This document shows positions 8,956-42,819 of a DNA stretch of 61,789 nt, piece after piece; position 1 is the stretch's first letter; each line of letters starts with the position of its first letter. Location of the stretch: positions 1 to 61,789 of the IMG/VR virus record IMGVR_UViG_3300035698_024294; one strand, 5' to 3'. This DNA is from a virus. Position numbers and translations under genes: made by a program. The notes under the pieces are model-generated. The model made no database searches, was not told where the DNA came from, and saw nothing but the letters and a program-made list of their open reading frames with translations.

Positions 8956-9160
8956 CGAAGAAAATAGACAAAGAATACAGGAAAGCATCTTTTATTTAAT
9001 CAAGTGGGGGTTTGATTACTCCGACTTGAAAAATATTCCTATTGAGGAATATAATAAATATGTTAAAATGTTGAATCAACACTATAAAGACAAAAAAGAT
9101 GCGACTGATAAAATAAATACAAAAGGAACTGGATAAAATAATCAGTTCCTTTTTTTATTG
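8954..9160 (+). CDS. +1 frameshift extension of the gp26-like protein
   Basis: Codons after the shift read NEENRQRIQESIFYLIKW, then GFDYSDLKNIPIEEYNKYVK and a Lys-rich tail, a pattern like the second domain of phage tail assembly proteins. The frame opens at 8939 and has no ATG before 9068, so translation most likely comes from the preceding gene by +1 slippage at 8950-8953. The last codons run through the terminator hairpin and stop inside the next promoter's -35. A 3'-terminal mutation that separated two once-fused parts is the alternative. Confidence 0.6.
9124..9155 (+). terminator. intrinsic terminator
   Basis: Stem GGAACTG / CAGTTCC with an 11-base loop, followed by seven T. It closes the gp26-like transcript just before the permease promoter. 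Confidence 0.85.
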
Positions 9161-9185
9161 ACAATAAAAGTATAATATGTTATAA
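9157..9185 (+). promoter_or_regulatory. early-type promoter
   Basis: TTGACA, 17-nt spacer ATAAAAGTATAATATGT, TATAAT. Drives the NCS2 permease, whose ATG is 18 bases after the -10. Confidence 0.9.
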
Positions 9186-9202
9186 TTATTTAAGGAGAAA
9201 GA

Positions 9203-10525
9203 ATGATAGGTTTTTTGAAGAGGTTTTTCAAGATTGAGGAAAACGGGACAAGCATTAAGACAGAAATTACTGCTGGTTTTACAACGTTCCTTACAATGGC
9301 ATATATTATTATAGTTAATCCAGCTATATTAAGTGCTGTAGGCGTTCCATTCGCCGGGATAATGTTTGCAACTATTATAGTGGCAAGTGTTTCAAGTATA
9401 CTAATGGGTCTATATGCAAATTTACCATTTGCACTGGCTCCGGGAATGGGACTAAACGCGTTTGTTGCATTTGGAATGATTCTTGGAATGGGAATTAGTT
9501 GGGAAACTGCAATGGGTGCAGTTGTGATTTCTGGTATAGTATTTATTATTATATCATTACCAAAAATTAATCTAAGAGAGAAGATAGTTAAAGCTATCCC
9601 TAAAACGTTACGGCTTGGAATAGCTGCTGGTATCGGTTTATTTTTAGCATTTATAGGTTTAGTAGATGCAGGAATTATAATTCCTAACGCGGCAACCCTA
9701 GTGGGGTTTTCAGGATTAACTCTAAACTTTGTGTTGTTTTTGTTTGGAATTATAGTTACAGGAGTTTTATTAGCCAAGAAAGTTAAAGGTGCTTTAGTAA
9801 TTGGAATAATTTCTACAGCAATTTTAGCGACGGTAACTTCGCTTGCTGGAATTGGAATGGTAGTAACTTTACCAACTGCAATTTTCGCATTACCAAGCCT
9901 TGAGATTTTTGCACACTTTGATATCTTAGGTGCGTTAAGTGTTGGAATGATTGCTCCACTATTTACACTTCTATTTACTGATATGTTTGATTCAATTTCA
10001 ACATTCGTAGGTGTTTCAGAAGTTGGTGGAATGATGGATGAAAATGGAGAACCTAAAAATGTAGGTAAAGCACTTTTAGTAGATGCAGTATCAACAACGA
10101 TTTCAGGTTTGACAGGAACATCACCCGGAACGACTTTTGTAGAAAGTGCATCTGGTGTTGAAGCAGGTGGAAGAACAGGATTGACTGCAGTAATCGCAGG
10201 ACTTTGTTTCTTGCCATTTATGTTTCTAAGTCCATTACTGAGTTTTATTCCAGTTGTGGCAACGGCTCCGGCATTAGTTATTGTTGGATTGTTTATGATG
10301 TCAGCATTGACAAAATTGGATTGGAAAGAATATACAACTTCCATTCCAGCATTTTTGGCAATGATTGCAATTCCGTTAACTTACAGTATTACCACGGGAA
10401 TTGTAGTAGGGTTTATAACGTATATATTTATGATGGTTTTCGCAAAGAAAATCAGAGAAATTCCAGTGACCTTATGGGTCGTAGGGATGTTCTCAGTATT
10501 CTCGTTAATTCTTACAGTAATCTAA
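9203..10525 (+). CDS. NCS2-family purine (guanine/hypoxanthine-type) permease
   Basis: 440 residues, nearly all hydrophobic helices (about 12-13 membrane segments), normal length for the AzgA/PbuG branch of NCS2. Family signatures are intact: EITAGFTTFLTMAYIIIVNP at the N-terminus, ALAPGMGLNAF, LFTDMFDSI, and GTSPGTTFVESASGVEAGGR. These proteins import guanine, hypoxanthine or adenine with protons or sodium across the inner membrane. It has its own early-type promoter (AAGGAG ribosome site) and terminator, so it is an independent unit. A nucleobase importer is an unusual phage gene and most likely feeds purine salvage during replication. Probably captured from a host. Confidence 0.9.
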   Translation: MIGFLKRFFKIEENGTSIKTEITAGFTTFLTMAYIIIVNPAILSAVGVPFAGIMFATIIVASVSSILMGLYANLPFALAPGMGLNAFVAFGMILGMGISWETAMGAVVISGIVFIIISLPKINLREKIVKAIPKTLRLGIAAGIGLFLAFIGLVDAGIIIPNAATLVGFSGLTLNFVLFLFGIIVTGVLLAKKVKGALVIGIISTAILATVTSLAGIGMVVTLPTAIFALPSLEIFAHFDILGALSVGMIAPLFTLLFTDMFDSISTFVGVSEVGGMMDENGEPKNVGKALLVDAVSTTISGLTGTSPGTTFVESASGVEAGGRTGLTAVIAGLCFLPFMFLSPLLSFIPVVATAPALVIVGLFMMSALTKLDWKEYTTSIPAFLAMIAIPLTYSITTGIVVGFITYIFMMVFAKKIREIPVTLWVVGMFSVFSLILTVI

Positions 10526-14247: not shown

Positions 14248-14411
14248 TGTTAGAGAGTAAAACTAAAAAAAAGATACTCGCCTTGTTAAAAGAGCAAGGC
14301 GGGCATAACGGAATTAGTTATTCAGGAAAAACTGAACTTTATACTATAAAATTTAACAAAGGTATTGTTATCAGTTTATCTTTTGATGAAATGAAGGAAC
14401 TTGAATTTTGA
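14247..14411 (+). CDS. small hypothetical protein between co-chaperonin and uvsW
   Basis: 54 residues, MLESKTKKKILALLKEQGG, ending MKELEF. It overlaps the co-chaperonin stop (TAATG) and the TTG start of uvsW (four bases), so all are translationally coupled. No family recognised. Confidence 0.6.
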   Translation: MLESKTKKKILALLKEQGGHNGISYSGKTELYTIKFNKGIVISLSFDEMKELEF

Positions 14412-16852
14412 AAATATTATTAACTGATTCTTACATAGCAATTGGTGATATATCTAAAGAAGTAATACTCAGCATAAAAGCTGAGTTTACTTATAAGGAC
14501 ATGTCTCAAGCAATGACTTCAAAAGGTTTTAATAAAAGAAAGATCAAAAAAGTATGCTTTGCAAAACAGAAAGGAAGCGCTTTAGTTTTAAGAGCTGGCT
14601 TTATAAAGGAATTACTTTTATTTATTAAAACAAATGGATACTCAGTTTCAGAGTTTCAGGATAAAAGAACTAAAGTAGAAATAAAAAAGTATACAGATGA
14701 ACAGTTAAGAAAACTGTTCGATCCAAAATTCAAATATGTTAAACATCAAATTAATTCGCTTCAAGCTTTATTAAAAACAAATGTAGGAATAATAAAAGCT
14801 CCTACTTCTGCTGGAAAGACTTCTATAATAATAGCTCTTATGAAATTGGTAAATATACCAACATTAATATTAGTTGATAGTGTGTCGTTAGCAACACAAA
14901 CGCTCGAAAGACTTAATGACGCTGGAATAAATTGTGGAATTTGTTATGGTAAAGGAAAAACTGATGGAGACCATGTGATTTCCACAATCGGTTCTTATAA
15001 AAAGCTTGGTGATTTAACCAGATATCAGAGAGTGATTGTAGATGAGTGTTTTCCAGGAGATACGAAAGTATTAACAGAAAATGGAAAAAAAACAATAGCA
15101 TCTTTGGTTAGATCGAAGTCTACTGAAAAAGTTTGGTCTTTCAGCGAAGAAACTGAAGGTTTTGAACTTAAAGAAATTTATAATTGGTATGAAAAGAAAA
15201 CTGAATCTAACTTAATAAAAGTTTGGTTTAACGGAATAGATTTTATTAAATCTACCCCTAATCATAAATATTATGTTTTAGAGAATAATTGTATTTTAGA
15301 AAAAAAGGCTGAAGATCTGAAGATCGGAGATGATTGCGTTGTTATGCCTAAAAAAACAAATAATAATAGAAGCATATCTCCTAAATTAAGTGAAAAACAA
15401 TACAAAGCAGCTATAGGTATGATTATCGGAGATGGTTGTATTCATAAGACGTCAAATCTTGCAAGGTTAGTTTTCTCTCAAGGAGAGGATCAATTAGATT
15501 ACTTGAATTATAAGTTATCTCTTCTTGATAACTTATATCAAAGAGATAATATAGCTGAAGGTGTTTCTGGATATAATGAAGAAAGGATAGTATACAACAC
15601 CTCAACACAGTCTTCTCAGGATTTTCTTGATTTATATGAGAAGTTTTATGTAAATGGTGTAAAAACAATTAAAAATATTATAAAAGAAATAGACGAAGTG
15701 AGCTTAGCTTTTTGGATAATGGATGATGGATGTCTTCAAAAAAAGTCTAAGACGTATGATCTATCAACTCATTCTTTTTCAAAAGAAGATAATGAGTTGA
15801 TAATGAAAGTATTTGAAGAAAAATTCGACATTTTATCAGTATTAAGATACGATAAAAGAATTGGAAAGTATTGGATCTATATAAGAAAAGAATCAACTGA
15901 AACAGTTTCTAGATTAATTTCTAAATATGTTCCTTCCTGTATGAATTATAAGTTGCTTGATGAAGATAAGAATAATTTTAATTTTATTATTGATGATAAG
16001 GTTTCTTATGGGATAAGAAGAGTTAGAAAAATAGAAGAGTTGATTCCTAGATTCAAGAACGTATACAACATATCAGTCAAAGATAATCATAATTATCTAG
16101 TTAATGATAACTTTCTTGTGTCTAATTGTCACATCGTTGGTTCAGCAAGGTTTCAGGAGTTTTTTGAAACAACAAGTTATCCATATAGATATGGATTTTC
16201 AGCAACACCTGATGGAAATGATAAATACAGATATGCTACTATTCGCCAGCATATTGGTGGAGAGATTTTTGAGATTTTTACTGATGAGCTGATGGAAAAT
16301 GAAGTAATGTCAAGACCTAAGATTAAATTTGTTCATGTTGATTGTATTGAAACACCGTCTTGGGATGCTGCGTATGAGAAATGTATTGTAAAGAATGAAT
16401 CCAGAAATAAGAAAATTGTAGAGTTAGCTAATCAGCAAGATGTTCCAACCCTTATTTTATATAAGATTATAGAACATGGAAAGATGCTTGGTGAAATGAT
16501 AGAAGGTTCTGTTGTATTAAATGGTAAAAGTACTGTTGCTGAAAGGCAAGATGCAATTGATAGATTTAAGTCTGGAGAAATTAAGTGTTTAATTGCTTCA
16601 AATATCTTCAAGCAAGGAATTTCTATCAATAACATTCAAACTTTAATAAATGCATCTGGCGGAAAATCAAAGATAGAAGTCCTTCAGAAGATAGGTAGAG
16701 CTCTCAGGCTTCACGAAGGAAAAGATTATGCACTCGTATATGACTTTATGGACGCAGGAAATAAGTATACAGATAGACACTCTCTTCAGAGAGAAAATCT
16801 GTATAGAAAAAATGGTTTTGATGATATAGAGTTTATAGAAGTAGAAGTTTGA
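14408..16852 (+). CDS. uvsW: UvsW-like superfamily 2 helicase containing an intein
   Basis: 814 residues as translated, about 454 after excision of the 360-residue intein (residues 214-573). Starts with TTG. Helicase motifs: Walker A APTSAGKTS (~residue 135), DExH box completed only by splicing (IVDE + CHIVG), motif III FSATP, then the second RecA domain with LIASNIFKQGISI and QKIGRALRL. UvsW rewinds and branch-migrates DNA and removes R-loops in the switch to recombination-dependent replication. It is the last gene of the SSB-uvsX-GroES segment and runs up to an early-type promoter. Confidence 0.88.
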   Translation: MKILLTDSYIAIGDISKEVILSIKAEFTYKDMSQAMTSKGFNKRKIKKVCFAKQKGSALVLRAGFIKELLLFIKTNGYSVSEFQDKRTKVEIKKYTDEQLRKLFDPKFKYVKHQINSLQALLKTNVGIIKAPTSAGKTSIIIALMKLVNIPTLILVDSVSLATQTLERLNDAGINCGICYGKGKTDGDHVISTIGSYKKLGDLTRYQRVIVDECFPGDTKVLTENGKKTIASLVRSKSTEKVWSFSEETEGFELKEIYNWYEKKTESNLIKVWFNGIDFIKSTPNHKYYVLENNCILEKKAEDLKIGDDCVVMPKKTNNNRSISPKLSEKQYKAAIGMIIGDGCIHKTSNLARLVFSQGEDQLDYLNYKLSLLDNLYQRDNIAEGVSGYNEERIVYNTSTQSSQDFLDLYEKFYVNGVKTIKNIIKEIDEVSLAFWIMDDGCLQKKSKTYDLSTHSFSKEDNELIMKVFEEKFDILSVLRYDKRIGKYWIYIRKESTETVSRLISKYVPSCMNYKLLDEDKNNFNFIIDDKVSYGIRRVRKIEELIPRFKNVYNISVKDNHNYLVNDNFLVSNCHIVGSARFQEFFETTSYPYRYGFSATPDGNDKYRYATIRQHIGGEIFEIFTDELMENEVMSRPKIKFVHVDCIETPSWDAAYEKCIVKNESRNKKIVELANQQDVPTLILYKIIEHGKMLGEMIEGSVVLNGKSTVAERQDAIDRFKSGEIKCLIASNIFKQGISINNIQTLINASGGKSKIEVLQKIGRALRLHEGKDYALVYDFMDAGNKYTDRHSLQRENLYRKNGFDDIEFIEVEV
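15047..16126 (+). mobile_element. UvsW intein with LAGLIDADG endonuclease
   Basis: Starts CFPGDTKVLT (block A), has block B TPNHKYYVL, two LAGLIDADG helices AAIGMIIGDG and LAFWIMDDG, and ends YLVNDNFLVSN before Cys+1. The C-terminal residue pair is Ser-Asn rather than His-Asn. Inserted exactly in the DECH box. Confidence 0.92.
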
Positions 16853-27827: not shown

Positions 27828-29117
27828 ATGAGCTTTTCGCACTTACATATCCATTCTCACATTGGAAGTCAATTGGATGGGGTAGGAACGCCTACCCAAT
27901 ATGCCGAATTGGCTAAAAAGATGGGTCATACATCTTTAGCAATTACAGACCACGGAAAAATGAATGGTCATTACGAACACTATCAAGCATGCAAAAAAGC
28001 TGGTATAAAACCTATCTTTGGAGTTGAGGCTTATGTAGAATTTGAGCTTGAAAGAATGGCTGAAGTTAAAGGAAAGGTGAAACGTCAAAGAAATAAAAAC
28101 ATGCATATGGTTTTATTGGCTAAGAACGAGATTGGATATAAAAACTTATTAAAGTTAAATTACTTATCTAATTCAGATGAAAAACATTATTATTACACAA
28201 ATCACATTTTAATTAAAGAAATTTTTGAGCATAAAGAAGGAATAATTATAGGAACTGCTTGTATGGGTTCTCCGTTTGCAAGATTATATAGAGATGATAA
28301 AAAAGATTTATCTGAAAAATTATTCAAGACTTTTAAGGAGCAGTTTGGAGAAGATTTTTACGCTGAAATTCAGATGAATGAAATTACTCATCCTATTGAT
28401 AATTTTGAGCATGGACAAAAATCTGTAAACGAATGGATGATTAGCCTTGCCAAAAAGTATGATGTTCCAATTGTAATGACGGGAGACGTTCACTATGCAG
28501 AACCAGGACTTGATAAAATTCAAACTCTTGCTATTGCAATAAGTAGAAAAACAACTCTTGCTGAATTAGATTGGAAGCTTGAAGGAAAAAGTTTATTCTA
28601 TATGGATGAAAGCGACTTTCATAAGTTTAATGAAGATTGGGATTATGGATACACAAAAGAAGAGATTGATGAATGGTGTAATAATACTCAATTGATTGCT
28701 GACAGATGTGAGTTTAAATTTATGGAAAGAAACAGATTGTTACTTCCGAAGTTTTCTAAGGATGATGATAGTTTATTGATTAAGGAAAGCAAGAATGGAC
28801 TCGTAAATAAAATGAAGCTTTCACTTTGGGAAGAAGTTCCAGTAAAATATAGAAAGCGACTTGTTAGAGAACTTGAAATTCTTTTAAGAAAAGGGTTTGC
28901 AAGTTATATTATGATTCTTTGGGATGTGTTTAACTTTTCAAAGAGAGAAAATATTATGAGAGGCCCTTCTCGCGGCTCTGGTGGAGGTTCTTTAGTTTTA
29001 TATTCCTTAGATATAACAACTTTAGATCCAATTGAATATGAACTGATTTTTGAAAGATTTCTTTCTGATGAACGTTCGATGGATGTTATATATGATTACT
29101 TTGGAGAAGCAATATGA
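27828..29117 (+). CDS. dnaE: DNA polymerase III alpha (DnaE), N-terminal piece: PHP domain and start of palm
   Basis: 429 residues. The PHP domain (1-~230) keeps metal-site motifs: HLHIHSHIGS, ITDHGKMNG, FGVEAYVE, GTACMGS and TGDVHYAEP, so proofreading by PHP is possible. Palm follows: MRGPSRGSGGGSLVLYSL, then TTLDPIEYELIFERFLSDER. In DnaE the next residues are SMPD(I/F)D.D with the catalytic Asp pair; here the frame reads SMDVIYDYFGEAI and stops, so the piece lacks all catalytic Asp. The missing part continues at 32087-33167 after 3 kb of other genes. Ribosome site AAAGGAGATAAA. ATGA overlap with the next gene. Confidence 0.92.
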   Translation: MSFSHLHIHSHIGSQLDGVGTPTQYAELAKKMGHTSLAITDHGKMNGHYEHYQACKKAGIKPIFGVEAYVEFELERMAEVKGKVKRQRNKNMHMVLLAKNEIGYKNLLKLNYLSNSDEKHYYYTNHILIKEIFEHKEGIIIGTACMGSPFARLYRDDKKDLSEKLFKTFKEQFGEDFYAEIQMNEITHPIDNFEHGQKSVNEWMISLAKKYDVPIVMTGDVHYAEPGLDKIQTLAIAISRKTTLAELDWKLEGKSLFYMDESDFHKFNEDWDYGYTKEEIDEWCNNTQLIADRCEFKFMERNRLLLPKFSKDDDSLLIKESKNGLVNKMKLSLWEEVPVKYRKRLVRELEILLRKGFASYIMILWDVFNFSKRENIMRGPSRGSGGGSLVLYSLDITTLDPIEYELIFERFLSDERSMDVIYDYFGEAI

Positions 29118-29972: not shown

Positions 29973-31277
29973 ATGAACCAAGAAGAAAAAGATGAACTGA
30001 AAATAATTATAGACAAGTATCTAAAAGACTTTGACGATTTAGGATACGAAATGAATGATGAACTCAAGAAAGCACTTTTGCTTGCTGAGTTCTCTGAGAA
30101 AAACGTTATCGTTTCTGGGAGTGCAGGGACTGGTAAATCTACATTTATAGAATTATTGCAGGCTAATACGGAAAAGAATTTAGTCTTGTTGGCTCCTACT
30201 GGAGTTGCTGCAGTTAATATTAAAGGTGTAACTATACACTCATTCTTCAAACTTGCCTTTGGCATAATAAATAAATTCGCAGTATCGTCAGGAAATAAAG
30301 ATGTAATAATGAAAACAGATGTTATTATTATAGATGAAATTTCAATGGTGAGAGCTGACTTAATGGATGCTATGGATTATCAGCTAAGAGTTTTAACTGG
30401 TAATTCTAATGTTCCATTTGGCGGAATTAAAATTATTGCTGTTGGTGACTTATTTCAATTACCTCCAATCGTTAGGAGAGGAAGTGCAGATGAGAAATAT
30501 ATAAAGGAAAACTTTTATTCTTCTTGGTTCTTTAGTGCTCCTGATATTGGACATTTCTCTATCGTTGAACTAACAAAAATTTATAGACAAAAAGACGAAA
30601 ATTTTGTAGAAACTCTTAATAGAATTAGAACAGGAAAACAGTCTTGGGATGATTTGAAATATATTAATAAAAGAGTTGTAAAAGAAGAAAGTTTTGGTGA
30701 TGATTATATTTATTTATCTACTACTAACAGAGTAGCTGATGAAATAAATAGAAAGCGTCTAAAGGAAATTAAGGAAAGGTCATATTATTTTTCAGCTCTT
30801 ATTTCAGGGGATTATCCTCAAGGTTCATATCCAACAACTGAAAGATTAGAGCTTAAGAAAGGCGCTCAAATAATGATGATTAAAAATGGATTGAATTGGT
30901 ATAATGGTCAAATAGGTTTTATTACTTCTATTGGAGAAGATTATATTAAAGTTTCTCTTGATGGTATAACTCGTTTAATTGCTAAAACTGTTTGGATAAA
31001 TGGAGACTATGAATTAAAGAATGGGAAAATTCAGATTACTGAAAAGGGACGTTTTACTCAATTTCCAGTTAAGCTTGCTTATGCAATAACAATTCATAAA
31101 AGTCAAGGAAAAACTTATGATAAAGTTTATATTGATTTAGGAAATGGAGCGTTTAGTGCAGGACAGACTTATGTTGCATTATCAAGATGCAAAACGTTAA
31201 AAGGAATTGGACTAAAGTATAAAGTGGAAAAATCAGATATTATAGTTGATAGAGTTTTGAAAGAAAATTTTGCATGA
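29973..31277 (+). CDS. Pif1-like superfamily 1B helicase (Dda role)
   Basis: 434 residues. Walker A GSAGTGKST (49-57), APTGVAAVNIKG, Walker B VIIIDEISMV, AVGDLFQLPP, and C-terminal YAITIHKSQGKTYDKV and TYVALSRCKTLKG. These are the motifs of the Pif1/RecD branch of 5'-3' helicases, as in T4 Dda. It likely removes proteins or structures at forks. Its gene lies between DnaE pieces and has its own promoter; the stop overlaps the HNH gene by 4 bases. Confidence 0.9.
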   Translation: MNQEEKDELKIIIDKYLKDFDDLGYEMNDELKKALLLAEFSEKNVIVSGSAGTGKSTFIELLQANTEKNLVLLAPTGVAAVNIKGVTIHSFFKLAFGIINKFAVSSGNKDVIMKTDVIIIDEISMVRADLMDAMDYQLRVLTGNSNVPFGGIKIIAVGDLFQLPPIVRRGSADEKYIKENFYSSWFFSAPDIGHFSIVELTKIYRQKDENFVETLNRIRTGKQSWDDLKYINKRVVKEESFGDDYIYLSTTNRVADEINRKRLKEIKERSYYFSALISGDYPQGSYPTTERLELKKGAQIMMIKNGLNWYNGQIGFITSIGEDYIKVSLDGITRLIAKTVWINGDYELKNGKIQITEKGRFTQFPVKLAYAITIHKSQGKTYDKVYIDLGNGAFSAGQTYVALSRCKTLKGIGLKYKVEKSDIIVDRVLKENFA

Positions 31278-31741
31278 CAAAAGCAGAATATAAAAGAGAC
31301 TGGAAAAGAGAAGCAAGAAAAAAAGATCTTTATTATAAGTCATGGGATAGTTTAGCTCGCCTTATCCGGCAAGATATCGGAAAAGAAAAAAAAGGAATAT
31401 GGATTGGAGAAATTGTAGGATATTCTAAGCAAGATTTTGGTAATTATATAGAAAGCATTTTTGAAGAAAAAATGAATTGGAAAAACTATGGAAAAGGAAA
31501 AGGTTTTTGGAATATAGATCATATTATTCCAAGAAATTTTTTTTATGATGCTTATGGATATAATTTAGAGGCAGCTAAAAAAGCAAACTCTTTAAGGAAT
31601 TTAAGACCTTTTTGGTTTGAAGATAATGTAATAAAAAGAAGAAACATAAGATTAGAAGAAGTGGAAAAATATCAATTAGAAGATTTAATTCCAGAGGTGT
31701 TTTTTGAAAAGCTTAAGTTATTAAAAGCAATAAAAACTTAA
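31274..31741 (+). CDS. HNH homing endonuclease
   Basis: 155 residues, basic N-terminus MTKAEYKRDWKREARKKD, HNH core FWNIDHIIPRNFF and NSLRNLRPFWFEDNV. Begins inside the helicase stop codon (ATGACA). It sits upstream of a decayed HNH gene and 0.6 kb before the group I intron, which carries no endonuclease of its own. Confidence 0.8.
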   Translation: MTKAEYKRDWKREARKKDLYYKSWDSLARLIRQDIGKEKKGIWIGEIVGYSKQDFGNYIESIFEEKMNWKNYGKGKGFWNIDHIIPRNFFYDAYGYNLEAAKKANSLRNLRPFWFEDNVIKRRNIRLEEVEKYQLEDLIPEVFFEKLKLLKAIKT

Positions 31742-31757
31742 CTAAAGGATAATAAAA

Positions 31758-32100
31758 ATGTTAAAAGAGAAAAAAACTATGATAATTAAAGTTCCTAGGA
31801 AGAGATAAAGACGGAAATAAATGGACTGAAATTTTAGGTTATAATGCTGATGATTTATTAAAGCATTTTGGAGTTTCTTTTATTCCAGAAGAATATCAAA
31901 TAGATCATATAATTCCAATAGATTTATATAATTTTTGTGGAATAGATGAAGAATTTATGAAATGCTGGAATATTAGAAACTTAAGAATAATTCCAGCTAA
32001 AGAAAATCAAGCAAAAGGAAATAAGCTTGACAAAAAAAGAATAATTGAGTATAATATAATAAACTTGTTACCAAAGGAGATAATTTTTGAAGACATTTGA
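31758..32100 (+). pseudogene. decayed HNH endonuclease
   Basis: The ATG frame at 31758 stops after 16 codons. The next frame is open for ~95 codons with EILGYNADDLLKHFG, then YQIDHIIPIDLYNF and CWNIRNLRIIPAKENQAKGN, a clear HNH core of the phage intron type. A one-base shift near 31800 separates start and domain. The early-type promoter at 32027 lies inside its 3' part. Confidence 0.75.
32027..32055 (+). promoter_or_regulatory. early-type promoter for dnaE middle piece
   Basis: TTGACA, AAAAAAGAATAATTGAG, TATAAT. Followed by AAAGGAG and a TTG start at 32087. Confidence 0.88.
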
Positions 32101-33167
32101 AGACTTAAAAAGTCTTTGCGAAAAGTCAGAAAGATTTTTTGTTCTCACAGAAGAACAGAAAAAAAGATACAAAAAAGAAATTAGTGTAGCTAAAAGATTT
32201 TATGACAATGGAAGAAATTTATATAATGAATTAGTTGAAAAACAGTTAATGTTAAAAACTCAATATATAATTCCATACATTATAGGATTAACAGATATGT
32301 TAACTGATGAAAAACCAGTTTATATTCAAGTAAAGTCTGGAGCCTCAGGTGGTAAGGCTTATGCCACCCGTTATAGAAATATAGCGTAAAAAATGTTCTA
32401 AATTGTCGGGGAACTCCAGAGATGGACAATCCGCAGCGAAACCCGAAAGGGGACGTTCAACGACTATAATGGACTGCCTAAACGTAAAGACGTAGGTAAA
32501 GGGATAGTCTGATCTTACTATATAATCTAAAAAGAAAAGTAAGCTAACATAAATGATAGACATAGATACTGACTGGCAAGGGAATGGTCGTGAAAAAATA
32601 TATAACTATCTTAAAGAAAAATATGGTGAAGATAGAGTTCTTCACGTAGGAACGTTTTCTGCACTTGGGCCAGCTTCTGCTGCTAAAGATGTTTTAAGGG
32701 CTAATGGAGCAGACTTTGGAAAATCAAATAAGTTTACAAAAGTTCTTGAAAAGAATGAAACTTGGCAAGAAAATCTCGATAGGATTAAAAGAGAAGAGCC
32801 AGAAAATTGGAAGTTCTATTTAGCTAACGAGAAAATTTTTGAAAGTGTTCCTCATCTAATCGGAAAAATTCGTCAGAGCGGAAAACATGCTGGAGGTATT
32901 GTAGTAAGTGATAAACCTATTTACAATTATATTCCAGTTGATAGAGTTAATGGAGAAGTTGTAACAGCTTTTCCAGAATCTGGAAGTAACGCCGTTCTTG
33001 ATGAATTAGGTATTATTAAATATGATATTCTTGGTATATCAATTCTTGACGTTATGGCAGAAACTATTGATATGATTGATGAAGAAATTTATATGATTGA
33101 AGATGATGATGGAGTAATTAAATTTGTTCCTCAGAGTTATATTGATAAAGAAATAGAACAATTTTAA
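32087..33167 (+). CDS. dnaE: DnaE middle piece with catalytic aspartates, interrupted by a group I intron
   Basis: Read as join(32087-32353, 32556-33167), 292 residues. Exon 1 gives 89 residues from a TTG start (AAAGGAG), MKTFEDLKSLCEKSERFF to QVKSGASGG, which I cannot align to DnaE. Exon 2 opens IDIDTDWQGNGREK, the palm motif with two catalytic Asp, continues VLHVGTFSALGPASAAKDVL, GKHAGGIVV and ELGIIKYDILGIS (third catalytic Asp, equivalent to E. coli D555), and stops at the position where DnaE continues in the 34805 gene. Without splicing only a 100-residue peptide ending in the intron is made, so polymerase activity depends on splicing. Whether exon 1 replaces a lost N-terminal join is unknown. 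Confidence 0.8.
32354..32555 (+). ncRNA. group I intron, 202 nt, no ORF
   Basis: P1: exon GGTGGT (32348-32353) pairs with GCCACC (32363-32368), giving the U-G pair at the 5' splice site. P6 is CCC-GAAA-GGG with a GNRA loop. P7 is CGACTA (32461-32466) with TAGTC (32505-32509). P8 is CCTAAACGT/ACGTAGG. P9 is CTTAC/GTAAG. The last intron base is G32555. P10 pairs exon 2 AUAG with UUAU next to the guide. Both exons join in frame. The core resembles the T4 td-type (IA2) intron. Confidence 0.85.
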
Positions 33168-33177
33168 GGGAGAGAAA

Positions 33178-33439
33178 GTGAAACTAAAATATAAAGAGTA
33201 TAAAGAAAAGGAAGTTAATATACATAAACGCGAAATGTTCTGATCTTTGCATATGTATTATTTATGATTCAGACGGCAATTTGTTAAAAGAAACTGACGG
33301 ATATGTTCCTTCATTTATGCCAGATGGCGGTGGAGATTATGTTGATTTAGAAATTGATGTAGATACAGGTCAAATTCTAAACTGGAGAGCAAACAAAGAA
33401 AATCTTGAAGATTTTATAAATGAAAAAGGAGATGAATAA
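33178..33439 (+). pseudogene. small gene with an internal frameshift
   Basis: A GTG frame (AGGGAGAGAAA ribosome site) reads MKLKYKEYKEKEVNI and stops at 33241. The +1 frame continues NAKCSDLCICIIYDSDGN, then YVPSFMPDGGGDYVDLEID and ends with TAAATG at the next start. Together they look like one 85-residue protein broken near 33220. A sequencing error or programmed shift is possible. Function unknown. Confidence 0.55.
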
Positions 33440-33652
33440 ATGAGAGCAAAATTTGAATGTTGTAGCGTAACGAGACTTAAAGATACTGTTGAAGCTTCAT
33501 TGACCGCTGTGTCAGGAGAAGATAAAGCAGATCAGGAGTTTAATAAATATACTCCATCAGGCACATTAACAATAATGATTGATAATAAAGCAGTTTTTAA
33601 TTTTTTTGAGCCTGGTAAAAAATATTTTCTTGACATTTCCGAGGAGGGTTAA
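33440..33652 (+). CDS. small hypothetical protein
   Basis: 70 residues, MRAKFECCSVTRLKDTVEAS, beta-rich, with FFEPGKKYFLDISEE at the end. Similar to small phage proteins of unknown function often seen beside replication genes. Start overlaps the previous stop region (TAAATG). Confidence 0.55.
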   Translation: MRAKFECCSVTRLKDTVEASLTAVSGEDKADQEFNKYTPSGTLTIMIDNKAVFNFFEPGKKYFLDISEEG

Positions 33653-33871
33653 GTGGCAATAAAAAATAAAGAAGTAATGGTTTTAGTAAACAAGAAAATA
33701 GAAGAGATGGAAAAACACTTTAATGTTTTAGAAACTGAAATTCAAAAAGATGATGATAAGTTTAATAAATCTATTGTCGCAGTTAGTGTTGGAAAATTGA
33801 TGAAACTCCATCAAGATGTTTCATTTTTTCTTGGTGTATTTGATGGTAAACCAAAATACGAAGGGCAATAA
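33653..33871 (+). CDS. small helical hypothetical protein
   Basis: 72 residues from a GTG start directly after the previous stop (GAGGAGGGT serves as ribosome site). Helical, charged. No family recognised. Confidence 0.5.
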   Translation: MAIKNKEVMVLVNKKIEEMEKHFNVLETEIQKDDDKFNKSIVAVSVGKLMKLHQDVSFFLGVFDGKPKYEGQ

Positions 33872-33874
33872 GAT

Positions 33875-34138
33875 ATGGAATTTTATAAAGGAATGTCAAT
33901 CCCTGGATTAGTTAGCGGATATATTTTTGAAGGAAACTTGCCTTTTTATAACGGTAAAAATGATTCAGGGATTACAATAGAAATGGATGGTGGCGTTAGA
34001 GGATTTAACATACGAGCAACTGCTATTTTTGACGGGGAAAAATGGAAAGTAAGTGGTAGCAGTTTTGACTTTACTGGAGAGAAAGTTTATATATGTGAAA
34101 AGGTAAGAACTCTCGTTTACGAAAAGGAAAAGGAATAG
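33875..34138 (+). CDS. small hypothetical protein
   Basis: 87 residues, MEFYKGMSIPGLVSGYIFEG, beta-rich (alternating hydrophobic, several Gly). Three bases after the previous gene; runs into the sigma-like gene. Confidence 0.5.
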   Translation: MEFYKGMSIPGLVSGYIFEGNLPFYNGKNDSGITIEMDGGVRGFNIRATAIFDGEKWKVSGSSFDFTGEKVYICEKVRTLVYEKEKE

Positions 34139-34141
34139 TAA

Positions 34142-34528
34142 TTGTTAAATATAGATAAAGATATCCTTAATGAAAAATATAATTCTGGTGATATGGATTA
34201 TTTTTTCAGTAAGGCTAACGAAATAACAGATTTCATTTTAACCAGAAAGTATAATATATATGATGATGAGAAGCGTGCTGATATGACTCAAGAATGTCTT
34301 GAAAACTTATGGAAGAAAGTAAAAGTAGGTAAGGTTGATGGTTCGAAGAACTTGATGAGTTTTGTTTGGCAAAACTCAACTTTCAGAATACTTGAAATTT
34401 TAAGGAAAGAAAAGAATCGAAATAGGATTGCACCTTTCATTTCGTATGACAATGAAGAATTTGAATTTCTTAAAGGCGTAGATAGTGCTAAGTATGGTCA
34501 AGCAGAAATAGATAAGATATTTGCGTAA
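34142..34528 (+). CDS. sigma-like factor, candidate late sigma (gp55-like)
   Basis: 128 residues from a TTG start (AAAAGGAATAG). The central part resembles sigma-70 region 2: DEKRADMTQECLENLWKKVK, then GSKNLMSFVWQNSTFRILEI and LRKEKNRNR, as in ECF factors and T4 gp55. The C-terminus is short and holds no region 4, like gp55, which needs other phage proteins. The window's late genes share a GTAAAGATAA-type motif that such a factor could read. Assignment by pattern only; a non-sigma helical protein is the alternative. Confidence 0.6.
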   Translation: MLNIDKDILNEKYNSGDMDYFFSKANEITDFILTRKYNIYDDEKRADMTQECLENLWKKVKVGKVDGSKNLMSFVWQNSTFRILEILRKEKNRNRIAPFISYDNEEFEFLKGVDSAKYGQAEIDKIFA

Positions 34529-34540
34529 AGAGGGGATAAA

Positions 34541-34768
34541 ATGAATGGATTTATAGCGAACAATTTCAGAGTAAAGTTTGAGTATATGTTGCTAGAACAA
34601 TACTCAAATGGGCCAGACCAGCACGAACGCTGGGTTAAAGTGATACAACTAAAGACAGAAGATGCGTTATTCATTGTTAGAGAGCGTTCCTTTGAACAAA
34701 TAAAAGATAAAGAATTTGAAAGTATGTGTAATTATACTGTTTGGGTTTTAGCAGGAAAACCAGAATAA
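34541..34768 (+). CDS. small hypothetical protein
   Basis: 75 residues, MNGFIANNFRVKFEYMLLEQ, behind AGAGGGGATAAA. Beta-rich start, no family recognised. Last gene before the promoter of the DnaE C-terminal pieces. Confidence 0.5.
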   Translation: MNGFIANNFRVKFEYMLLEQYSNGPDQHERWVKVIQLKTEDALFIVRERSFEQIKDKEFESMCNYTVWVLAGKPE

Positions 34769-34770
34769 CC

Positions 34771-34799
34771 TTGACATAAAAAGAATAATATAGTATAAT
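34771..34799 (+). promoter_or_regulatory. early-type promoter for dnaE C-terminal pieces
   Basis: TTGACA, TAAAAAGAATAATATAG, TATAAT; ATG at 34805 is five bases after the -10, so there is no room for a ribosome site. Confidence 0.88.
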
Positions 34800-34804
34800 T
34801 AGTT

Positions 34805-35476
34805 ATGAGAATAATAAAAAAGGTAACTAAACAAGAATTGAAAGATCGTCTGTATAATATTGATACAGGCGATCTTAATCTTTACAAAGAAGCTAACAAC
34901 GAAAATTCTATTGGTATTTTTCAACTCAATGGAAATCTTGCACACGAAATAATTAAAAAAGTAAAACCTCAAAATTTTGACGAGATAAATGCAGTCTCTG
35001 CTTTCGCAAGACCTGGAACATCAAGTTTCGTCGATAAATACATTAAAAACAGAGAAAATCATAAATCTCAGTATCCAGAAAAAATAGCTGCATTGTTACA
35101 AGAAACTCAATCCGTTGTTTTATATCAGGAACAGGCAATGTCTGTATTTAATAAGATTGGTGGATTTTCTCTTGAAGAGTGTTTAACTGGAGATACTATA
35201 ATTCTTACAAATAAAGGGGATATTTCAATAAAAGAAATAGTAGAAAATAAATTAGATATAAAAGTTTTATCACTGAATGAAGAAACTGGTGAACTTGAAA
35301 TGAAACCAGTGATTAAGTTCTTTAATAATGGAACAAGAGAACTAATAGAAATAGAGATAGAAGCAGGAAATGCTATAAAATGCACTCCAGAACATGAATT
35401 TTATACAAAGAATAGAGGCTGGATAGAAGCTAAAGATTTAACAGAAGAAGATGAACTTTTTCATAACCCATCGTAA
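34805..35476 (+). CDS. dnaE: DnaE third piece fused to N-terminal half of a split intein
   Basis: 223 residues. Residues 1-125 continue DnaE after the catalytic Asp: SIGIFQLNGNLAHEIIKKVK, FDEINAVSAFARPGTSSFVD, SVVLYQEQAMSVFNKIGG (fingers). After FSLEE the intein half starts at Cys126, CLTGDTIILT, with block B CTPEHEFYTK, and ends DELFHNPS with a stop. Residues 126-223 (98 aa) are a normal split-intein N half. The partner is at 36371. An HNH gene separates them, the layout called a fractured gene. The spliced product is DnaE residues joined as FSLEE + CDSIRGLM. Confidence 0.93.
   Translation: MRIIKKVTKQELKDRLYNIDTGDLNLYKEANNENSIGIFQLNGNLAHEIIKKVKPQNFDEINAVSAFARPGTSSFVDKYIKNRENHKSQYPEKIAALLQETQSVVLYQEQAMSVFNKIGGFSLEECLTGDTIILTNKGDISIKEIVENKLDIKVLSLNEETGELEMKPVIKFFNNGTRELIEIEIEAGNAIKCTPEHEFYTKNRGWIEAKDLTEEDELFHNPS
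35180..35473 (+). mobile_element. split intein, N half (DnaE)
   Basis: 98 codons from Cys1 (TGT 35180) to the stop, blocks A and B present. Split is at the canonical position between the horseshoe halves. Confidence 0.92.
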
Positions 35477-35482
35477 AGATAA
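35473..35482 (+). promoter_or_regulatory. late-type motif GTAAAGATAA before the HNH gene
   Basis: A perfect GTAAAGATAA that includes the stop codon of the N-intein gene, followed by TATAAGGAG and the HNH start. If functional, it would give the endonuclease late expression separate from the polymerase pieces. Confidence 0.45.
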
Positions 35483-35496
35483 TATAAGGAGATACG

Positions 35497-36381
35497 ATGA
35501 ACTATGAAAAAAACTATAATGATTATATTAATTATGTTAAATCTTTAAATAGAAAAAAAAGTGACTGTATGTATTATGAATTACATCATATAATCCCTAG
35601 AAGCTTAAAAGGAACAAACGATGACGGCAATTTAGTTTTGTTGACATATAGAGAGCATTATTTAGCCCATTTTTTATTATGGAAAATTTATAGCAATAAA
35701 GAAATGATGTATTCTTTTTGGTTAATGAATAACACAAAGAGCAAAGTTAAGTTTAACATAAGTTCAAGATTATATGAAAGTCTAAAAACTTCTTTTATAA
35801 AGGCACAAGAGAAAAAAGTTATTTGTTTAGAAACAGGTAGAGTTTTCGATTCTATGAAAAAAGCTTCCTCTTTTTATGACTTAACAAGTGCAGACGGGAT
35901 AAGGATTTCAATAAAGAATAAAAACAGTATTTCAGCTGGATATCATTGGGATTATTATTATGATAATATAGATTATACAAGAGATAAGTTTTACAAAAAA
36001 CAAAAAAATGTATATACTGTTATTAGGCTAGAGGACGTGGAAAAATATCTCTCTTATAAAGAGGCTGGAATAGATAATAACATAACAGGATCTACTATTT
36101 GTGATGCTGCAACTGGCAGAACAAAAACAGCCAATGGATATCATTGGAGTAAATTTGATAGCCTTGTTGATTATACTAAAAATAAGTTTTATAAAAAAGA
36201 AAGAATGTCATTTCCTTCTGGATACAAAAAAGTTGTTTGTATCGAAACAGGAAAAAAATATAATTCTCAGCAAGAAGCTGCTAGAGACATAGGATATAAA
36301 ATATCTGGAGATATAGGCAGATGTTGCGACGGAAAATTGAAGTCTTGTGGCGGATTTCGCTGGAGAAGAAATGAAAATTAA
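35497..36381 (+). CDS. HNH endonuclease with NUMOD1 repeats, inside the split-intein gap
   Basis: 294 residues. HNH core YYELHHIIPRSLKGTNDDGN, then LVLLTYREHYLAHFLL. The rest holds three NUMOD1-like DNA-binding repeats: VICLETGRVFDSMKKAS, an internal copy YLSYKEAGIDNNITGSTI, and VVCIETGKKYNSQQEAA, each ending in (A/G)GYHW or CGGFRW. It lies exactly between the two intein halves and overlaps the C half by 11 bases. It presumably targets intein-free dnaE. Confidence 0.88.
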   Translation: MNYEKNYNDYINYVKSLNRKKSDCMYYELHHIIPRSLKGTNDDGNLVLLTYREHYLAHFLLWKIYSNKEMMYSFWLMNNTKSKVKFNISSRLYESLKTSFIKAQEKKVICLETGRVFDSMKKASSFYDLTSADGIRISIKNKNSISAGYHWDYYYDNIDYTRDKFYKKQKNVYTVIRLEDVEKYLSYKEAGIDNNITGSTICDAATGRTKTANGYHWSKFDSLVDYTKNKFYKKERMSFPSGYKKVVCIETGKKYNSQQEAARDIGYKISGDIGRCCDGKLKSCGGFRWRRNEN

Positions 36382-36472
36382 AAACATAAAAAAAATTGAA
36401 TCAGAAACTGTTTACGATATAAAAGTTAAAGATAACCATAACTTTTTTGCTAATAACGTTTTGGTTCATAAT
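36371..36472 (+). mobile_element. split intein, C half (DnaE)
   Basis: 34 codons ending His-Asn before Cys+1 (36473), matching the N half at 35180. Confidence 0.92.
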
Positions 36473-37615
36473 TGCGATAGTATTCGTGGTCTTATGAAAA
36501 AACTTGGAAAGGCTGAAAAAAAGAAAGAAGATCTTGATAAATGGGATGTCGTTATTAAACGATTTACAAAAGGAGCACAAGAAACTGGTATCTCTTTAAA
36601 AGATGCAAAAAATGTTGCTAGCGATATGCTTAAAATGTCGTCGTACCAATTTAATAAATCTCATGCAACTGCATATACTTTTATTGCAGCTCAAACTTTG
36701 TATTTATCATATTACTTTAGAAAATACTTTTATGCGTCAGTTCTCCATTACGAGGTAGGACGAGATAAGTATCTTTTAGAGAGATTAAAATCTGTTAAGT
36801 CTCAAGGGTTTAACATACTTCCTCCAGATGTAAACAAATCAAAAATAAGTTTATCTCCTGTTAAAGGAAGCGCAAACTCTATTATCTTTGGATTATATGA
36901 TGTTAAAGGTATTGGAGAAGTTCCGGCAACTACTATTAAATCGTTACAACCATTTGATTCAATGATAGATTTCATTCTTAAAATTCAGGGTAAAAGAATT
37001 TCTATTACTGTTATAAAGGCTCTCGTTGTAGCAGGTGCTTTTGATGATATAGAGGATTATGATAAGAAGATTTTATATGAAGCTGTTCTTTTATTCTGGA
37101 AGGATAAGAAGTCGACAAAAGTTCCAGAAAAGTTAGAGCAGATTTGGGATGCTTCTTTACAAACAGTTATAGAGACAACTCTTCCAGCTACGTTTGAGGA
37201 ACAGAAAGACTATGAAAGAAAATCTCTTGGGTTTAATTTCTTTATAAATTCTTTCACAGAAGAGTTCTTATCAGCAATTGATGTTCTTGTCAAGAAAGGA
37301 TTAGCTTATCCGTCAATAGATAAAGTAAGAAAAGGATCTGCTAAAGTTCCTGTAGTTGTTAATAAGATTAAAACCCTTAACGACAAGAATGGTAAAGAAA
37401 TGGCTTTTCTTGATTTAGAAGATCAATTAGGCCAAGACTTAAGCGTTCCAATATTTCAAAGTTTTTGGAAGGTTCTGAAGACAAGGTTTGTTGAAGGTAA
37501 GATGCATATGATAAATTTGTATCTTGATGATGATCAGGTTATGTTCGGAAAGAGTGGATATGTCAGGAAGGATATGGAAATTTCAAGAATGGTGAAGAGA
37601 TTAGATAACCTGTAA
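36371..37615 (+). CDS. dnaE: C-terminal half of split intein fused to DnaE C-terminal piece
   Basis: 414 residues from ATG 36371 (TGGAGAAGAA); an upstream ATG at 36347 lies within the HNH gene. Residues 1-34, MKIKNIKKIESETVYDIKVK to NNVLVHN, are the intein C half (blocks F and G), followed by Cys+1. DnaE continues CDSIRGLMKKLGKAEKKKED, SSYQFNKSHATAYTFIAAQT (fingers), GFNILPPDVNKS, YDVKGIGEVPA (HhH) and an OB-like C-terminal region. A clear clamp-binding peptide is not visible. About 505 DnaE residues result after trans-splicing with the 34805 product. Confidence 0.93.
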   Translation: MKIKNIKKIESETVYDIKVKDNHNFFANNVLVHNCDSIRGLMKKLGKAEKKKEDLDKWDVVIKRFTKGAQETGISLKDAKNVASDMLKMSSYQFNKSHATAYTFIAAQTLYLSYYFRKYFYASVLHYEVGRDKYLLERLKSVKSQGFNILPPDVNKSKISLSPVKGSANSIIFGLYDVKGIGEVPATTIKSLQPFDSMIDFILKIQGKRISITVIKALVVAGAFDDIEDYDKKILYEAVLLFWKDKKSTKVPEKLEQIWDASLQTVIETTLPATFEEQKDYERKSLGFNFFINSFTEEFLSAIDVLVKKGLAYPSIDKVRKGSAKVPVVVNKIKTLNDKNGKEMAFLDLEDQLGQDLSVPIFQSFWKVLKTRFVEGKMHMINLYLDDDQVMFGKSGYVRKDMEISRMVKRLDNL

Positions 37616-41366: not shown

Positions 41367-41797
41367 TGGAAAAAAAATTAGGAATTTATGCAGGTAGTTT
41401 TAATCCATATCATATTGGGCATGAAGATATTTACCGACAAGCTTCTAAAGTTTTTGATGAAGTTATGATAGCACAATGTTATGATAGAGGAAAGGGTCAG
41501 CCAGCAAATCTTAAGCTAAAAGGAAGAAATGTTATTCACCATGGAGGACTTTTATATGAACTGTTTTATAAAGAATATCAAGTAGGAAAGTTTCTTGTCA
41601 GAGGGCTTAGAACGAGTTTCGATGTTGGGTATGAAAGTGATTTAAGAAATGTGCTTCTCGATTTTGATCCAACAATCAAAATCGTATATTTCTTTTGTAA
41701 GAAAGAACATGAACATGTATCTTCTTCAATGATAAGAAGTTTATATGGTTTTGGAGATGAAAATTATAAAAAATATTTAGTAGAGGGAGATATATAG
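41366..41797 (+). CDS. coaD: phosphopantetheine adenylyltransferase-like nucleotidyltransferase
   Basis: 143 residues, slightly short for CoaD (~160). Motifs: LGIYAGSFNPYHIGHEDI (HxGH nucleotide-binding site), FLVRGLRTSFDVGYESDL (RG substrate loop), then HVSSSMIRSL near the end, as in CoaD and related adenylyltransferases. CoaD transfers AMP to phosphopantetheine in coenzyme A synthesis; a change of substrate in this phage protein is possible. Start overlaps the exonuclease stop and its stop overlaps the next GTG. Confidence 0.75.
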   Translation: MEKKLGIYAGSFNPYHIGHEDIYRQASKVFDEVMIAQCYDRGKGQPANLKLKGRNVIHHGGLLYELFYKEYQVGKFLVRGLRTSFDVGYESDLRNVLLDFDPTIKIVYFFCKKEHEHVSSSMIRSLYGFGDENYKKYLVEGDI

Positions 41798-42819
41798 TGA
41801 TAGTTATAGGAAGTGGAAATTGTGGTTCTAAGTTAGCTACTTTATTTGACGATGATCCAATTCTAATTTCTACAGCTCATCAGGATTCGATGAACTTTAG
41901 TGATTACAAAGTAAATACGTTTACAGACGAAGGATGTGGTAAAAAATATGGAACTGGAGTTAAACTCTGGAATACTCATCTTAAGGAACTTGAAGCTGTA
42001 TTTGAAAAAGTAGATAACGAACAGGTCATTATTTTCTCAAGTATGGGCGGAGGTTCAGGAAGTTCTTCTCTTCAATTTATATCTAAGATTTTAATTGAAA
42101 AGGGAAATGATGTTTTAATTATTGGAGTTTTGCCTTTCAAGAAAGAAGTGGTTCCTCCTTTGGCAAATGCAGTTCAATCAATTAGCAGCCTTATGCCTTT
42201 GATAAATGATATAACAATTATGTTATTCGATAATCAAATATTATTAAAAGAACATAACAATGACTGGACTGAAGTAAATAACAATATAGTTAGAAAAGTA
42301 AATTATGCTGTTAATTTAATTGATAATCATTCAGTTGATGGATATTCTCCATTAACTATTGATCAGTCAGAAGTTGAATCTGTAGTGTTTGGTGGTGGAT
42401 TTTTAGATGTATCGGATGTGTTTCTTGAAGAAAATCCGCCTAAGTTTCAATATGGAAGATTAGACAAAGAAACAAAAAATGTAATGATTGCAATGTTTGT
42501 AGATGAAATGGTTGAAGATGATAAGCTTGAAGACTATCACAAAAAGTTAACTGAGGTTCAAAGCAAATACGCAGGAAGAGCAAAGAACGCAAGGATTGTT
42601 CCTGGCATAATTCGAGGAAGAGTTCTAAATTCATATTCAGAAGAAAAAGTAACTGATAGAGCTTATATCACAATTGCTTCTGGGTTGAATGTAGAAAAGT
42701 ATCTTGTTCGAATAGAGAAACTTAGAGATTTTGCTGTAGAGAAGGCAACTATTTTTTCCAGTAAGATTGTTGGAAGAAAAGTTGTTAGCAATAAAGAAAC
42801 AAAGATACTGGATATTTAA
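41797..42819 (+). CDS. FtsZ/tubulin-superfamily GTPase
   Basis: 340 residues from GTG. The N-terminal nucleotide loop is MIVIGSGNCGSKLATLF, the tubulin signature is SMGGGSGSSSLQF (residues ~83-92; GGGTGTG in FtsZ), followed by IIGVLPFKKEV as in FtsZ GVVTxPF, and LFDNQILL like the FtsZ N-x-x-L segment. A helix with NNNIVRKVNYAVNLI follows. The C-terminal domain is shorter than in FtsZ and has no conserved tail. Phage tubulins (PhuZ, TubZ-like) form filaments that position phage DNA; alternatively this protein interferes with host FtsZ. It is cotranscribed with replication-type genes. Confidence 0.78.
   Translation: MIVIGSGNCGSKLATLFDDDPILISTAHQDSMNFSDYKVNTFTDEGCGKKYGTGVKLWNTHLKELEAVFEKVDNEQVIIFSSMGGGSGSSSLQFISKILIEKGNDVLIIGVLPFKKEVVPPLANAVQSISSLMPLINDITIMLFDNQILLKEHNNDWTEVNNNIVRKVNYAVNLIDNHSVDGYSPLTIDQSEVESVVFGGGFLDVSDVFLEENPPKFQYGRLDKETKNVMIAMFVDEMVEDDKLEDYHKKLTEVQSKYAGRAKNARIVPGIIRGRVLNSYSEEKVTDRAYITIASGLNVEKYLVRIEKLRDFAVEKATIFSSKIVGRKVVSNKETKILDI

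What the first reader, a model, noticed from the sequence alone, without database searches (positions are those of the whole stretch)
34805..37615. Fractured gene: canonical split intein around an HNH/NUMOD1 endonuclease in DnaE
98-residue N half, free-standing endonuclease with its own late-type motif, 34-residue C half with His-Asn and Cys+1. This is the arrangement known from environmental phage data (split inteins with an endonuclease between), here in a Pol III gene. New natural split inteins with fast trans-splicing are rare.
Basis: partly seen in the sequence, partly recalled or inferred. Interest (0 to 1): 0.8.

Follow-up and report, generated by a model that had tools for sequence, protein, structure and literature searches.

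The report
Split intein in three-gene phage polymerase
A virus of bacteria carries its DNA-copying enzyme in three separate genes, and one of these genes is cut again by a two-part self-splicing protein element with a DNA-cutting gene parked in the gap, so the enzyme seems to need both RNA splicing and protein joining to become whole.

Summary
At 34805-37615 a DnaE gene is interrupted by a canonical class 1 split intein: IntN 98 aa (35180-35473, then stop), a free-standing HNH/NUMOD-like homing endonuclease ORF (35497-36381), and IntC 34 aa (36371-36472, ends His-Asn, Cys+1). Removing the insert leaves an extein that matches intein-free relatives with no residue gained or lost. The same split element (same stop, same overlapping IntC start) sits at the same site in a distant relative (L028); intein and endonuclease are at 60-77% identity there and all segments show dN well below dS. 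Closest solved intein: the natural split intein NrdJ-1. So trans-splicing is very likely, though untested. The 'late-type motif' before the endonuclease is not supported. The split intein is a new member of the known 'fractured gene' kind; the layered polymerase is a new variant.

The parts
27828..29117 (+). dnaE gene A: PHP domain and first part of the palm (GPSRGSGGGS), ends ...ERSMDVIYDYFGEAI
   Evidence: Pfam PHP E 2e-33, DNA_pol3_alpha positions 5-99; TIGR00594 positions 1-396; 75% identical full length in L003
32087..32353 (+). dnaE gene B, 5' exon (TTG start): helical N-terminal extension ending ...SGASGG
   Evidence: contiguous with the palm part in L003, L015, L005, L006 and others
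32354..32555 (+). group I intron, 202 nt; U at the 5' splice site paired with G in P1 (GGUGGU/GCCACC), last base G
   Evidence: Rfam RF00028 at 32344-32529, 65.1 bits, cut-off 50, E 2.9e-16; exact boundaries and junction; P1 in the predicted fold
32556..33167 (+). dnaE gene B, 3' exon: catalytic palm (IDIDTDW ... IKYDILGI)
   Evidence: Pfam DNA_pol3_alpha 102-260; TIGR00594 398-574
34771..34799 (+). sigma-70-type promoter TTGACA-17-TATAAT directly before gene C
   Evidence: 12 of 12 consensus bases; one of 17 copies of the motif in the window, 0 expected
34805..35179 (+). dnaE gene C, N-extein (fingers), ends ...GGFSLEE
   Evidence: DNA_pol3_finger E 7.6e-27; continuous with the C-extein in L003
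35180..35476 (+). IntN, 98 aa plus TAA stop; blocks A and B (Cys1, TPEH)
   Evidence: TIGR01445 60.8 bits; 61% identical with the same last residues and stop in L028
35497..36381 (+). free-standing HNH homing endonuclease with NUMOD-like repeats (three seen by eye)
   Evidence: phrog_655 E 1.2e-35; Pfam HNH and I-HmuI_NUMOD-like just under cut-off; 61-66% identical in L028
36371..36472 (+). IntC, 34 aa, own ATG and Shine-Dalgarno inside the end of the HNH ORF; ends His-Asn
   Evidence: TIGR01443 26.8 bits; 77% identical in L028; start context
36473..37615 (+). dnaE gene C, C-extein, begins with Cys+1 (CDSIRGLMKK)
   Evidence: HHH_6 E 1.2e-14; TIGR00594 706-1016
31274..31741 (+). HNH ORF upstream of gene B (possible partner of the intron)
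   Evidence: phrog_1035 endonuclease VII E 9.6e-5
31786..32100 (+). C-terminal remnant of an HNH endonuclease directly upstream of gene B
   Evidence: 71% identical to the end of a longer ORF (8855-9556) at the same place in intron-bearing L012

Best explanation
Gene C of a three-gene phage DNA polymerase III alpha carries a mobile 'fractured gene' element. The N precursor (extein plus IntN) and the C precursor (IntC plus extein) are made as separate polypeptides; the acidic IntN and IntC associate, and class 1 protein trans-splicing (Cys1, branched intermediate on Cys+1, Asn cyclisation) joins ...GGFSLEE to CDSIRGL... to give intact subunit C. The HNH/NUMOD-like protein, translated from its own ribosome-binding site between the halves, cuts intein-free gene C alleles so that repair copies the whole IntN-HNH-IntC block into them. 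Subunit C then assembles non-covalently with A and with B, whose mRNA first loses a group I intron. Shown from sequence: anatomy, intact splicing motifs, exact empty site, conservation of the split element in a second phage family member, and tiling of the enzyme by A, B and C. Inferred: trans-splicing, homing and three-chain assembly.
For: Both intein halves pass curated cut-offs. The spliced product ...GGFSLEECDSIRGLMKKLGKA matches the uninterrupted L004 product ...GGFSLEECDGIRGLMKKLGKA and L003 with no residue gained or lost. The same element is at the same site in L028, on another contig with exteins only 57% and 44% identical: IntN 61%, HNH parts 66% and 61%, IntC 76.5%, the same terminal DELFHNPS-stop and an overlapping IntC start; dN 0.30, 0.24, 0.27 and 0.10 against dS 0.87, 1.16, 1.84 and 1.15 for IntN, the two HNH parts and IntC. 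2 of 16 distinct family members that cover the site hold the element. Closest solved structure by sequence is the split intein NrdJ-1 (8ubs, E 2.8e-22). Charge: IntN -10, IntC +2, as in the electrostatic capture described in passages of PMC11923092. A, B and C tile TIGR00594 as 1-396, 398-574 and 571-1016.
Against: No splicing, cleavage or polymerase activity has been shown. The HNH ORF in L028 is broken by one frameshift near a run of A, either an error or decay. HNH and NUMOD scores are just under the Pfam cut-offs. The elements could be joined by chance co-inheritance without active homing. With only 2 occupied sites, mobility rests on the patchy distribution.
Confidence: 0.82

Rival explanations
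1. Assembly or sequencing error: a continuous intein with an internal endonuclease was broken into three ORFs by miscalled bases.
For: Metagenome record; L028's HNH ORF does have a frameshift next to a run of A.
Against: In two separate contigs the N half ends at the same residue and stop, a Shine-Dalgarno and ATG follow for the HNH ORF, and IntC has its own ATG that overlaps the HNH end. The HNH frame differs from the two halves.
Confidence: 0.04
2. The halves are a decayed intein; subunit C is non-functional, or its two parts work as separate chains without splicing.
For: DnaE is already split elsewhere in this family without any intein, so chains can work unligated.
Against: All splicing residues are intact (Cys1, TxxH, His-Asn, Cys+1) and IntN and IntC are under purifying selection (dN far below dS); IntC is the most conserved segment of the locus between window and L028.
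Confidence: 0.09
3. The HNH protein is a passenger: it homes to another site and merely landed in an existing split intein, so the element does not move as one block.
For: Relatives of the HNH are free-standing homing endonucleases of T4-like phages at about 28% identity and one in contig L059 that is not next to dnaE gene C within the stretch seen.
Against: The HNH lies in the same gap of the same intein in L028 at 61-66% identity, as high as the intein itself.
Confidence: 0.25

Closest known systems
'Fractured genes' of environmental phages: split inteins with a free-standing endonuclease gene between the halves (Dassa et al. 2009, NAR 37:2560; paper not held; title seen in reference lists; content recalled)
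   Same: IntN ORF, stop, free endonuclease ORF, IntC ORF, in an essential phage replication gene, split at the endonuclease insertion position
   Different: HNH with NUMOD-like repeats; the host gene is dnaE and is itself only one of three dnaE genes
Pseudomonas phage vB_PaeM_MIJ3 PolB split intein with HNH gene (PMC6892783, passages read)
   Same: Split intein around an HNH homing endonuclease ORF in a phage DNA polymerase gene
   Different: Family B polymerase, Ser1 and Ser+1 according to the quoted blocks; here Pol III alpha, Cys1 and Cys+1
NrdJ-1 natural split intein (PDB 8ubs)
   Same: Closest solved intein by sequence, E 2.8e-22; natural split intein
   Different: Other host gene (ribonucleotide reductase; recalled from its name); clearly diverged sequence
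Cyanobacterial split DnaE inteins (Npu/Ssp; 2keq, 4kl5)
   Same: Split intein in DnaE
   Different: Different insertion site (recalled: before Cys-Phe-Asn-Lys-Ser-His); no endonuclease gene between the halves (recalled); weaker match (2keq E 6.1e-12)
Minimal Pol III alpha split into two proteins in group 2.2 jumbo phages (PMC7824862, passages read)
   Same: Split between the NTP-binding part and the Mg2+-binding part, as between genes A and B here
   Different: That version lacks the other Pol III domains and accompanies a family B polymerase; here a full-length PHP-type enzyme in three genes
Bacillus phage vB_BauM_KLEB27-3 Pol III alpha, two ORFs with an HNH gene between
   Same: dnaE broken with an HNH ORF in the gap
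   Different: The gap holds a weak group I intron match (22.2 bits, below cut-off), not an intein, and lies elsewhere in the protein

Membership tests
Split intein (class 1) | Block A with Cys1 and block B TxxH in an N fragment | tested here: met
   TIGR01445 60.8 bits vs 24.5; CLTGDT and TPEH read directly
Split intein (class 1) | Blocks F and G with terminal His-Asn and Cys/Ser/Thr+1 in a C fragment | tested here: met
   TIGR01443 26.8 bits vs 15.6; VLVHN|C
Split intein (class 1) | Fragments on separate ORFs, split at the endonuclease position (about 100 + 35-40 aa) | tested here: met
   98 and 34 aa, stop codon and separate ATG; conserved in L028
Split intein (class 1) | Trans-splicing activity | not testable with these tools
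   needs co-expression
Fractured gene | Free-standing endonuclease gene between the halves | tested here: met
   HNH ORF 35497-36381, phrog_655 E 1.2e-35
Fractured gene | Uninterrupted homologues with an exact empty site | tested here: met
   14 of 16 distinct family members that cover the site are empty
HNH/NUMOD homing endonuclease | HNH nuclease motif | tested here: inconclusive
   Pfam HNH 21.2 bits vs cut-off 21.4; PHROG homing endonuclease clear
HNH/NUMOD homing endonuclease | NUMOD DNA-binding repeats | tested here: inconclusive
   I-HmuI_NUMOD-like 26.4 vs cut-off 27; NUMOD1 itself not reported; the predicted fold is low confidence (pLDDT 54.8)
HNH/NUMOD homing endonuclease | Cuts the intein-free allele | not testable with these tools
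   needs a cleavage assay
Group I intron | Conserved core, U.G at the 5' splice site, terminal G | tested here: met
   RF00028 65.1 bits vs 50; boundaries 32354-32555; P1
DNA polymerase III alpha | PHP, palm, fingers and HHH parts all present across genes A-C | tested here: met
   intact single-gene forms in more distant relatives

The most novel reading that the evidence does not exclude
The phage's replicative Pol III alpha is a natural three-chain enzyme whose single active site is built from three gene products (A: GRGS nucleotide-binding part; B: catalytic Asp; C: fingers). Two of the three chains are matured by different self-splicing chemistries, group I RNA splicing for B and protein trans-splicing for C. 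The family is a hot spot in which split inteins with free endonuclease genes enter successive active-site positions (GRG|S, IRQ|SGKHAGG, SLEE|C).
Probability: 0.55. Interest if true: 0.7.

Novelty: new variant of a known kind. Interest (0 to 1): 0.52.

Why it matters
As a split intein alone it adds a likely functional Cys-type natural split intein, nearest to NrdJ-1, for protein ligation. With its surroundings it offers a natural test of how finely a replicative polymerase can be cut and still work: three chains sharing one active site, with RNA splicing and protein trans-splicing both on the path. The distribution (empty, contiguous-intein and split-intein alleles in one phage family) gives material to ask whether a gene break precedes or follows intein invasion.

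Tried and rejected
First idea: genes A and B are joined by a 3-kb or trans-acting group I intron. Rejected: the tail of gene A is conserved to its stop in relatives, no Rfam match lies at its end, and the intron's 5' exon is the ORF at 32087, contiguous with the palm in intron-free relatives.

The ATG at 32553 as the start of a palm gene: rejected, it holds the intron's last base.

An intron at the B|C break: no Rfam match in 33100-34900 up to E 0.5.

Assembly error: rejected through L028.

Late promoter before the HNH ORF: no support.

HNH query alone in viral contigs: no relative; with the two-row alignment A7 it found L028 and weak ones. Structure predictions were too weak to use: gene B of L003 pLDDT 65.4, pTM 0.39 (only its N-terminal helices and one further stretch are confident); HNH pLDDT 54.8. 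No fold search was run on them. The whole-window Rfam scan missed the intron; the short-stretch scan found it. Dassa 2009 could not be read.

Full report
What is there. The window is a virus record of 61,789 bases. At 34805-37615 the C-terminal part of a DNA polymerase III alpha gene is interrupted by IntN (98 aa, stop at 35474-35476), an HNH endonuclease ORF (35497-36381) and IntC (34 aa, from ATG 36371). Both intein halves pass curated family cut-offs, the extein halves match polymerase III domains, and the endonuclease matches a PHROG homing endonuclease family at E 1.2e-35. Its Pfam HNH and NUMOD-like scores fall just below cut-off.

Empty site. In L003 the two extein halves run on without a gap, and in L004 the uninterrupted protein reads GGFSLEECDGIRGLMKK, against GGFSLEE|CDSIRGLMKK in the window after removal of the intein. 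Of 16 distinct contigs of this family that cover the site (17 records; L023 and L024 are 99.99% identical over 8 kb), 14 are empty and 2 are filled: the window and L028. Empty alleles have Thr, Ser, Cys, Ala or (L026) another residue at this place.

The second copy. L028 lies on a 71-kb contig whose dnaE exteins are 57% and 44% identical to the window's. It has IntN (61%), HNH (66% and 61% in the two parts compared) and IntC (76.5%) in the same order, with the same last residues DELFHNPS and stop, and the IntC start again inside the end of the HNH ORF. dN is well below dS in every segment; dS values of 0.9-1.8 are rough. One frameshift breaks the L028 HNH ORF near a run of A; whether this is an error or decay is open. 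This copy speaks strongly against an assembly artefact and shows that the split form is kept.

Nearest characterised inteins. Against solved structures the joined halves match NrdJ-1 best (8ubs, E 2.8e-22), then an Spl DnaX mini-intein and others; the cyanobacterial DnaE inteins are weaker (2keq, E 6.1e-12). Net charge is -10 for IntN and +2 for IntC, and -9 and +1 in L028. Passages of PMC11923092 describe association of oppositely charged fragments. Trans-splicing is therefore likely but untested.

The endonuclease's expression. The perfect promoter TTGACA-17-TATAAT at 34771-34799 precedes gene C, whose ATG at 34805 follows so closely that the mRNA may be leaderless. The motif occurs 17 times in the window, none expected by chance, and not before the HNH ORF. 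TATAAATA is at chance level. The HNH ORF and IntC have their own ribosome-binding sites.

A polymerase in three genes. The three genes tile the family model TIGR00594: A 1-396, B 398-574, C 571-695 and 706-1016. A holds PHP and the GRGS motif, B the catalytic Asp motifs, C the fingers and the rest. In the family, A and B are separate genes in 14 of 15 distinct viruses that show both (the exception, L023/L024, has A and B fused through the same linker of about 88 residues), and B and C are separate in 15 of 15. In more distant relatives the script found one continuous frame across the breaks in 12 records (L007, seen for B-C only; L029, L030, L032, L034-L037, L040, L048-L050). L051 has another A|B break, and L047 has intein parts at its A region. 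So the three-gene state arose inside this clade. No intron match lies at either gene break.

A group I intron in gene B. RF00028 matches 32344-32529 with 65.1 bits. The exact intron is 32354-32555: the upstream exon ends in U, P1 pairs GGUGGU with GCCACC, and the last base is G. The joined exons read GASGG-IDIDTDW, as in uninterrupted L015. The energy of the predicted fold is only mildly better than shuffles (z -1.72), so the case rests on the Rfam match and the boundaries. 3 of 16 distinct viruses that cover the site have it: window, L012, L014. In L012, as in the window, an HNH ORF ends right before gene B; in intron-free L003 and L015 none is seen there, and in intron-bearing L014 none was recognised.

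Other insertions in the same polymerase. L014 gene A: split intein at GRG|S with an ORF between the halves. L006 gene A: contiguous intein at the same site. L015 gene B: split intein at IRQ|SGKHAGG with an HNH-like ORF between. L004, L014, L019, L023/L024 and L025 gene C: contiguous inteins at FNK|SH, 5 of 16 distinct viruses. These readings of endonuclease types are by eye.

How it most likely works. See best explanation. Trans-splicing has the strongest support, homing less, three-chain assembly is inferred from tiling and conservation.

Comparison with the literature. Phage MIJ3 has a split intein around an HNH ORF in its PolB (PMC6892783, passages). A minimal Pol III split in two proteins is described in jumbo phages (PMC7824862, passages), which also mentions an intron in the polymerase gene of phage G. 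Dassa et al. 2009 was not available and is recalled. Seven searches listed no title or abstract start on a three-gene PHP-type dnaE or on this intein; I read only listings and passages of four papers, so absence from print is not shown. The element itself is a new member of a known kind; the whole arrangement is a new variant.

Noticed in passing
window 32354-32555: 202-nt group I intron without ORF in dnaE gene B, just before the catalytic IDIDTDW motif; also in L012 and L014.
   Followed up: yes
window 27828-29117, 32087-33167, 34805-37615: DNA polymerase III alpha encoded in three genes in this phage clade, with a helicase gene and small genes between them; L023/L024 have A and B fused through an 88-residue linker.
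   Followed up: yes
window 9158-61694, 17 sites: Highly conserved promoter TTGACA..AAAAGAATAAT-N4-TATAATTA, 17 copies on the + strand (none expected); before gene C and the Pif1-like helicase the start codon follows within a few bases, which suggests leaderless mRNAs.
   Followed up: partly
window 11780-13930: RecA/UvsX-like gene (name by eye) with a contiguous intein, HNH-like region inside, at the Walker A motif.
   Followed up: no
window 14408-16852: DEAD-type helicase gene (by eye, UvsW-like) with a contiguous intein carrying a LAGLIDADG-like region (by eye).
   Followed up: no
window 31274-32100; L012 8855-9556: HNH ORFs directly upstream of intron-bearing gene B; the second is a truncated remnant in the window and a longer ORF in L012. 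Possible collaborative homing partner of the ORF-less intron; L014 has the intron without such an ORF.
   Followed up: partly
L008 9200-12403: A gene in a 198-kb viral contig (polymerase-like by eye) with two inteins whose halves are separated by stop codons, the first with no endonuclease gene in the gap.
   Followed up: no
L015 9731-11928 and L014 2826-5560: Further split inteins with an ORF between the halves in dnaE genes B and A of relatives, at other active-site motifs.
   Followed up: partly
window 41797-42819: Tubulin/FtsZ-family GTPase gene (Pfam Tubulin 56.3 bits), conserved next to the polymerase genes in relatives.
   Followed up: no
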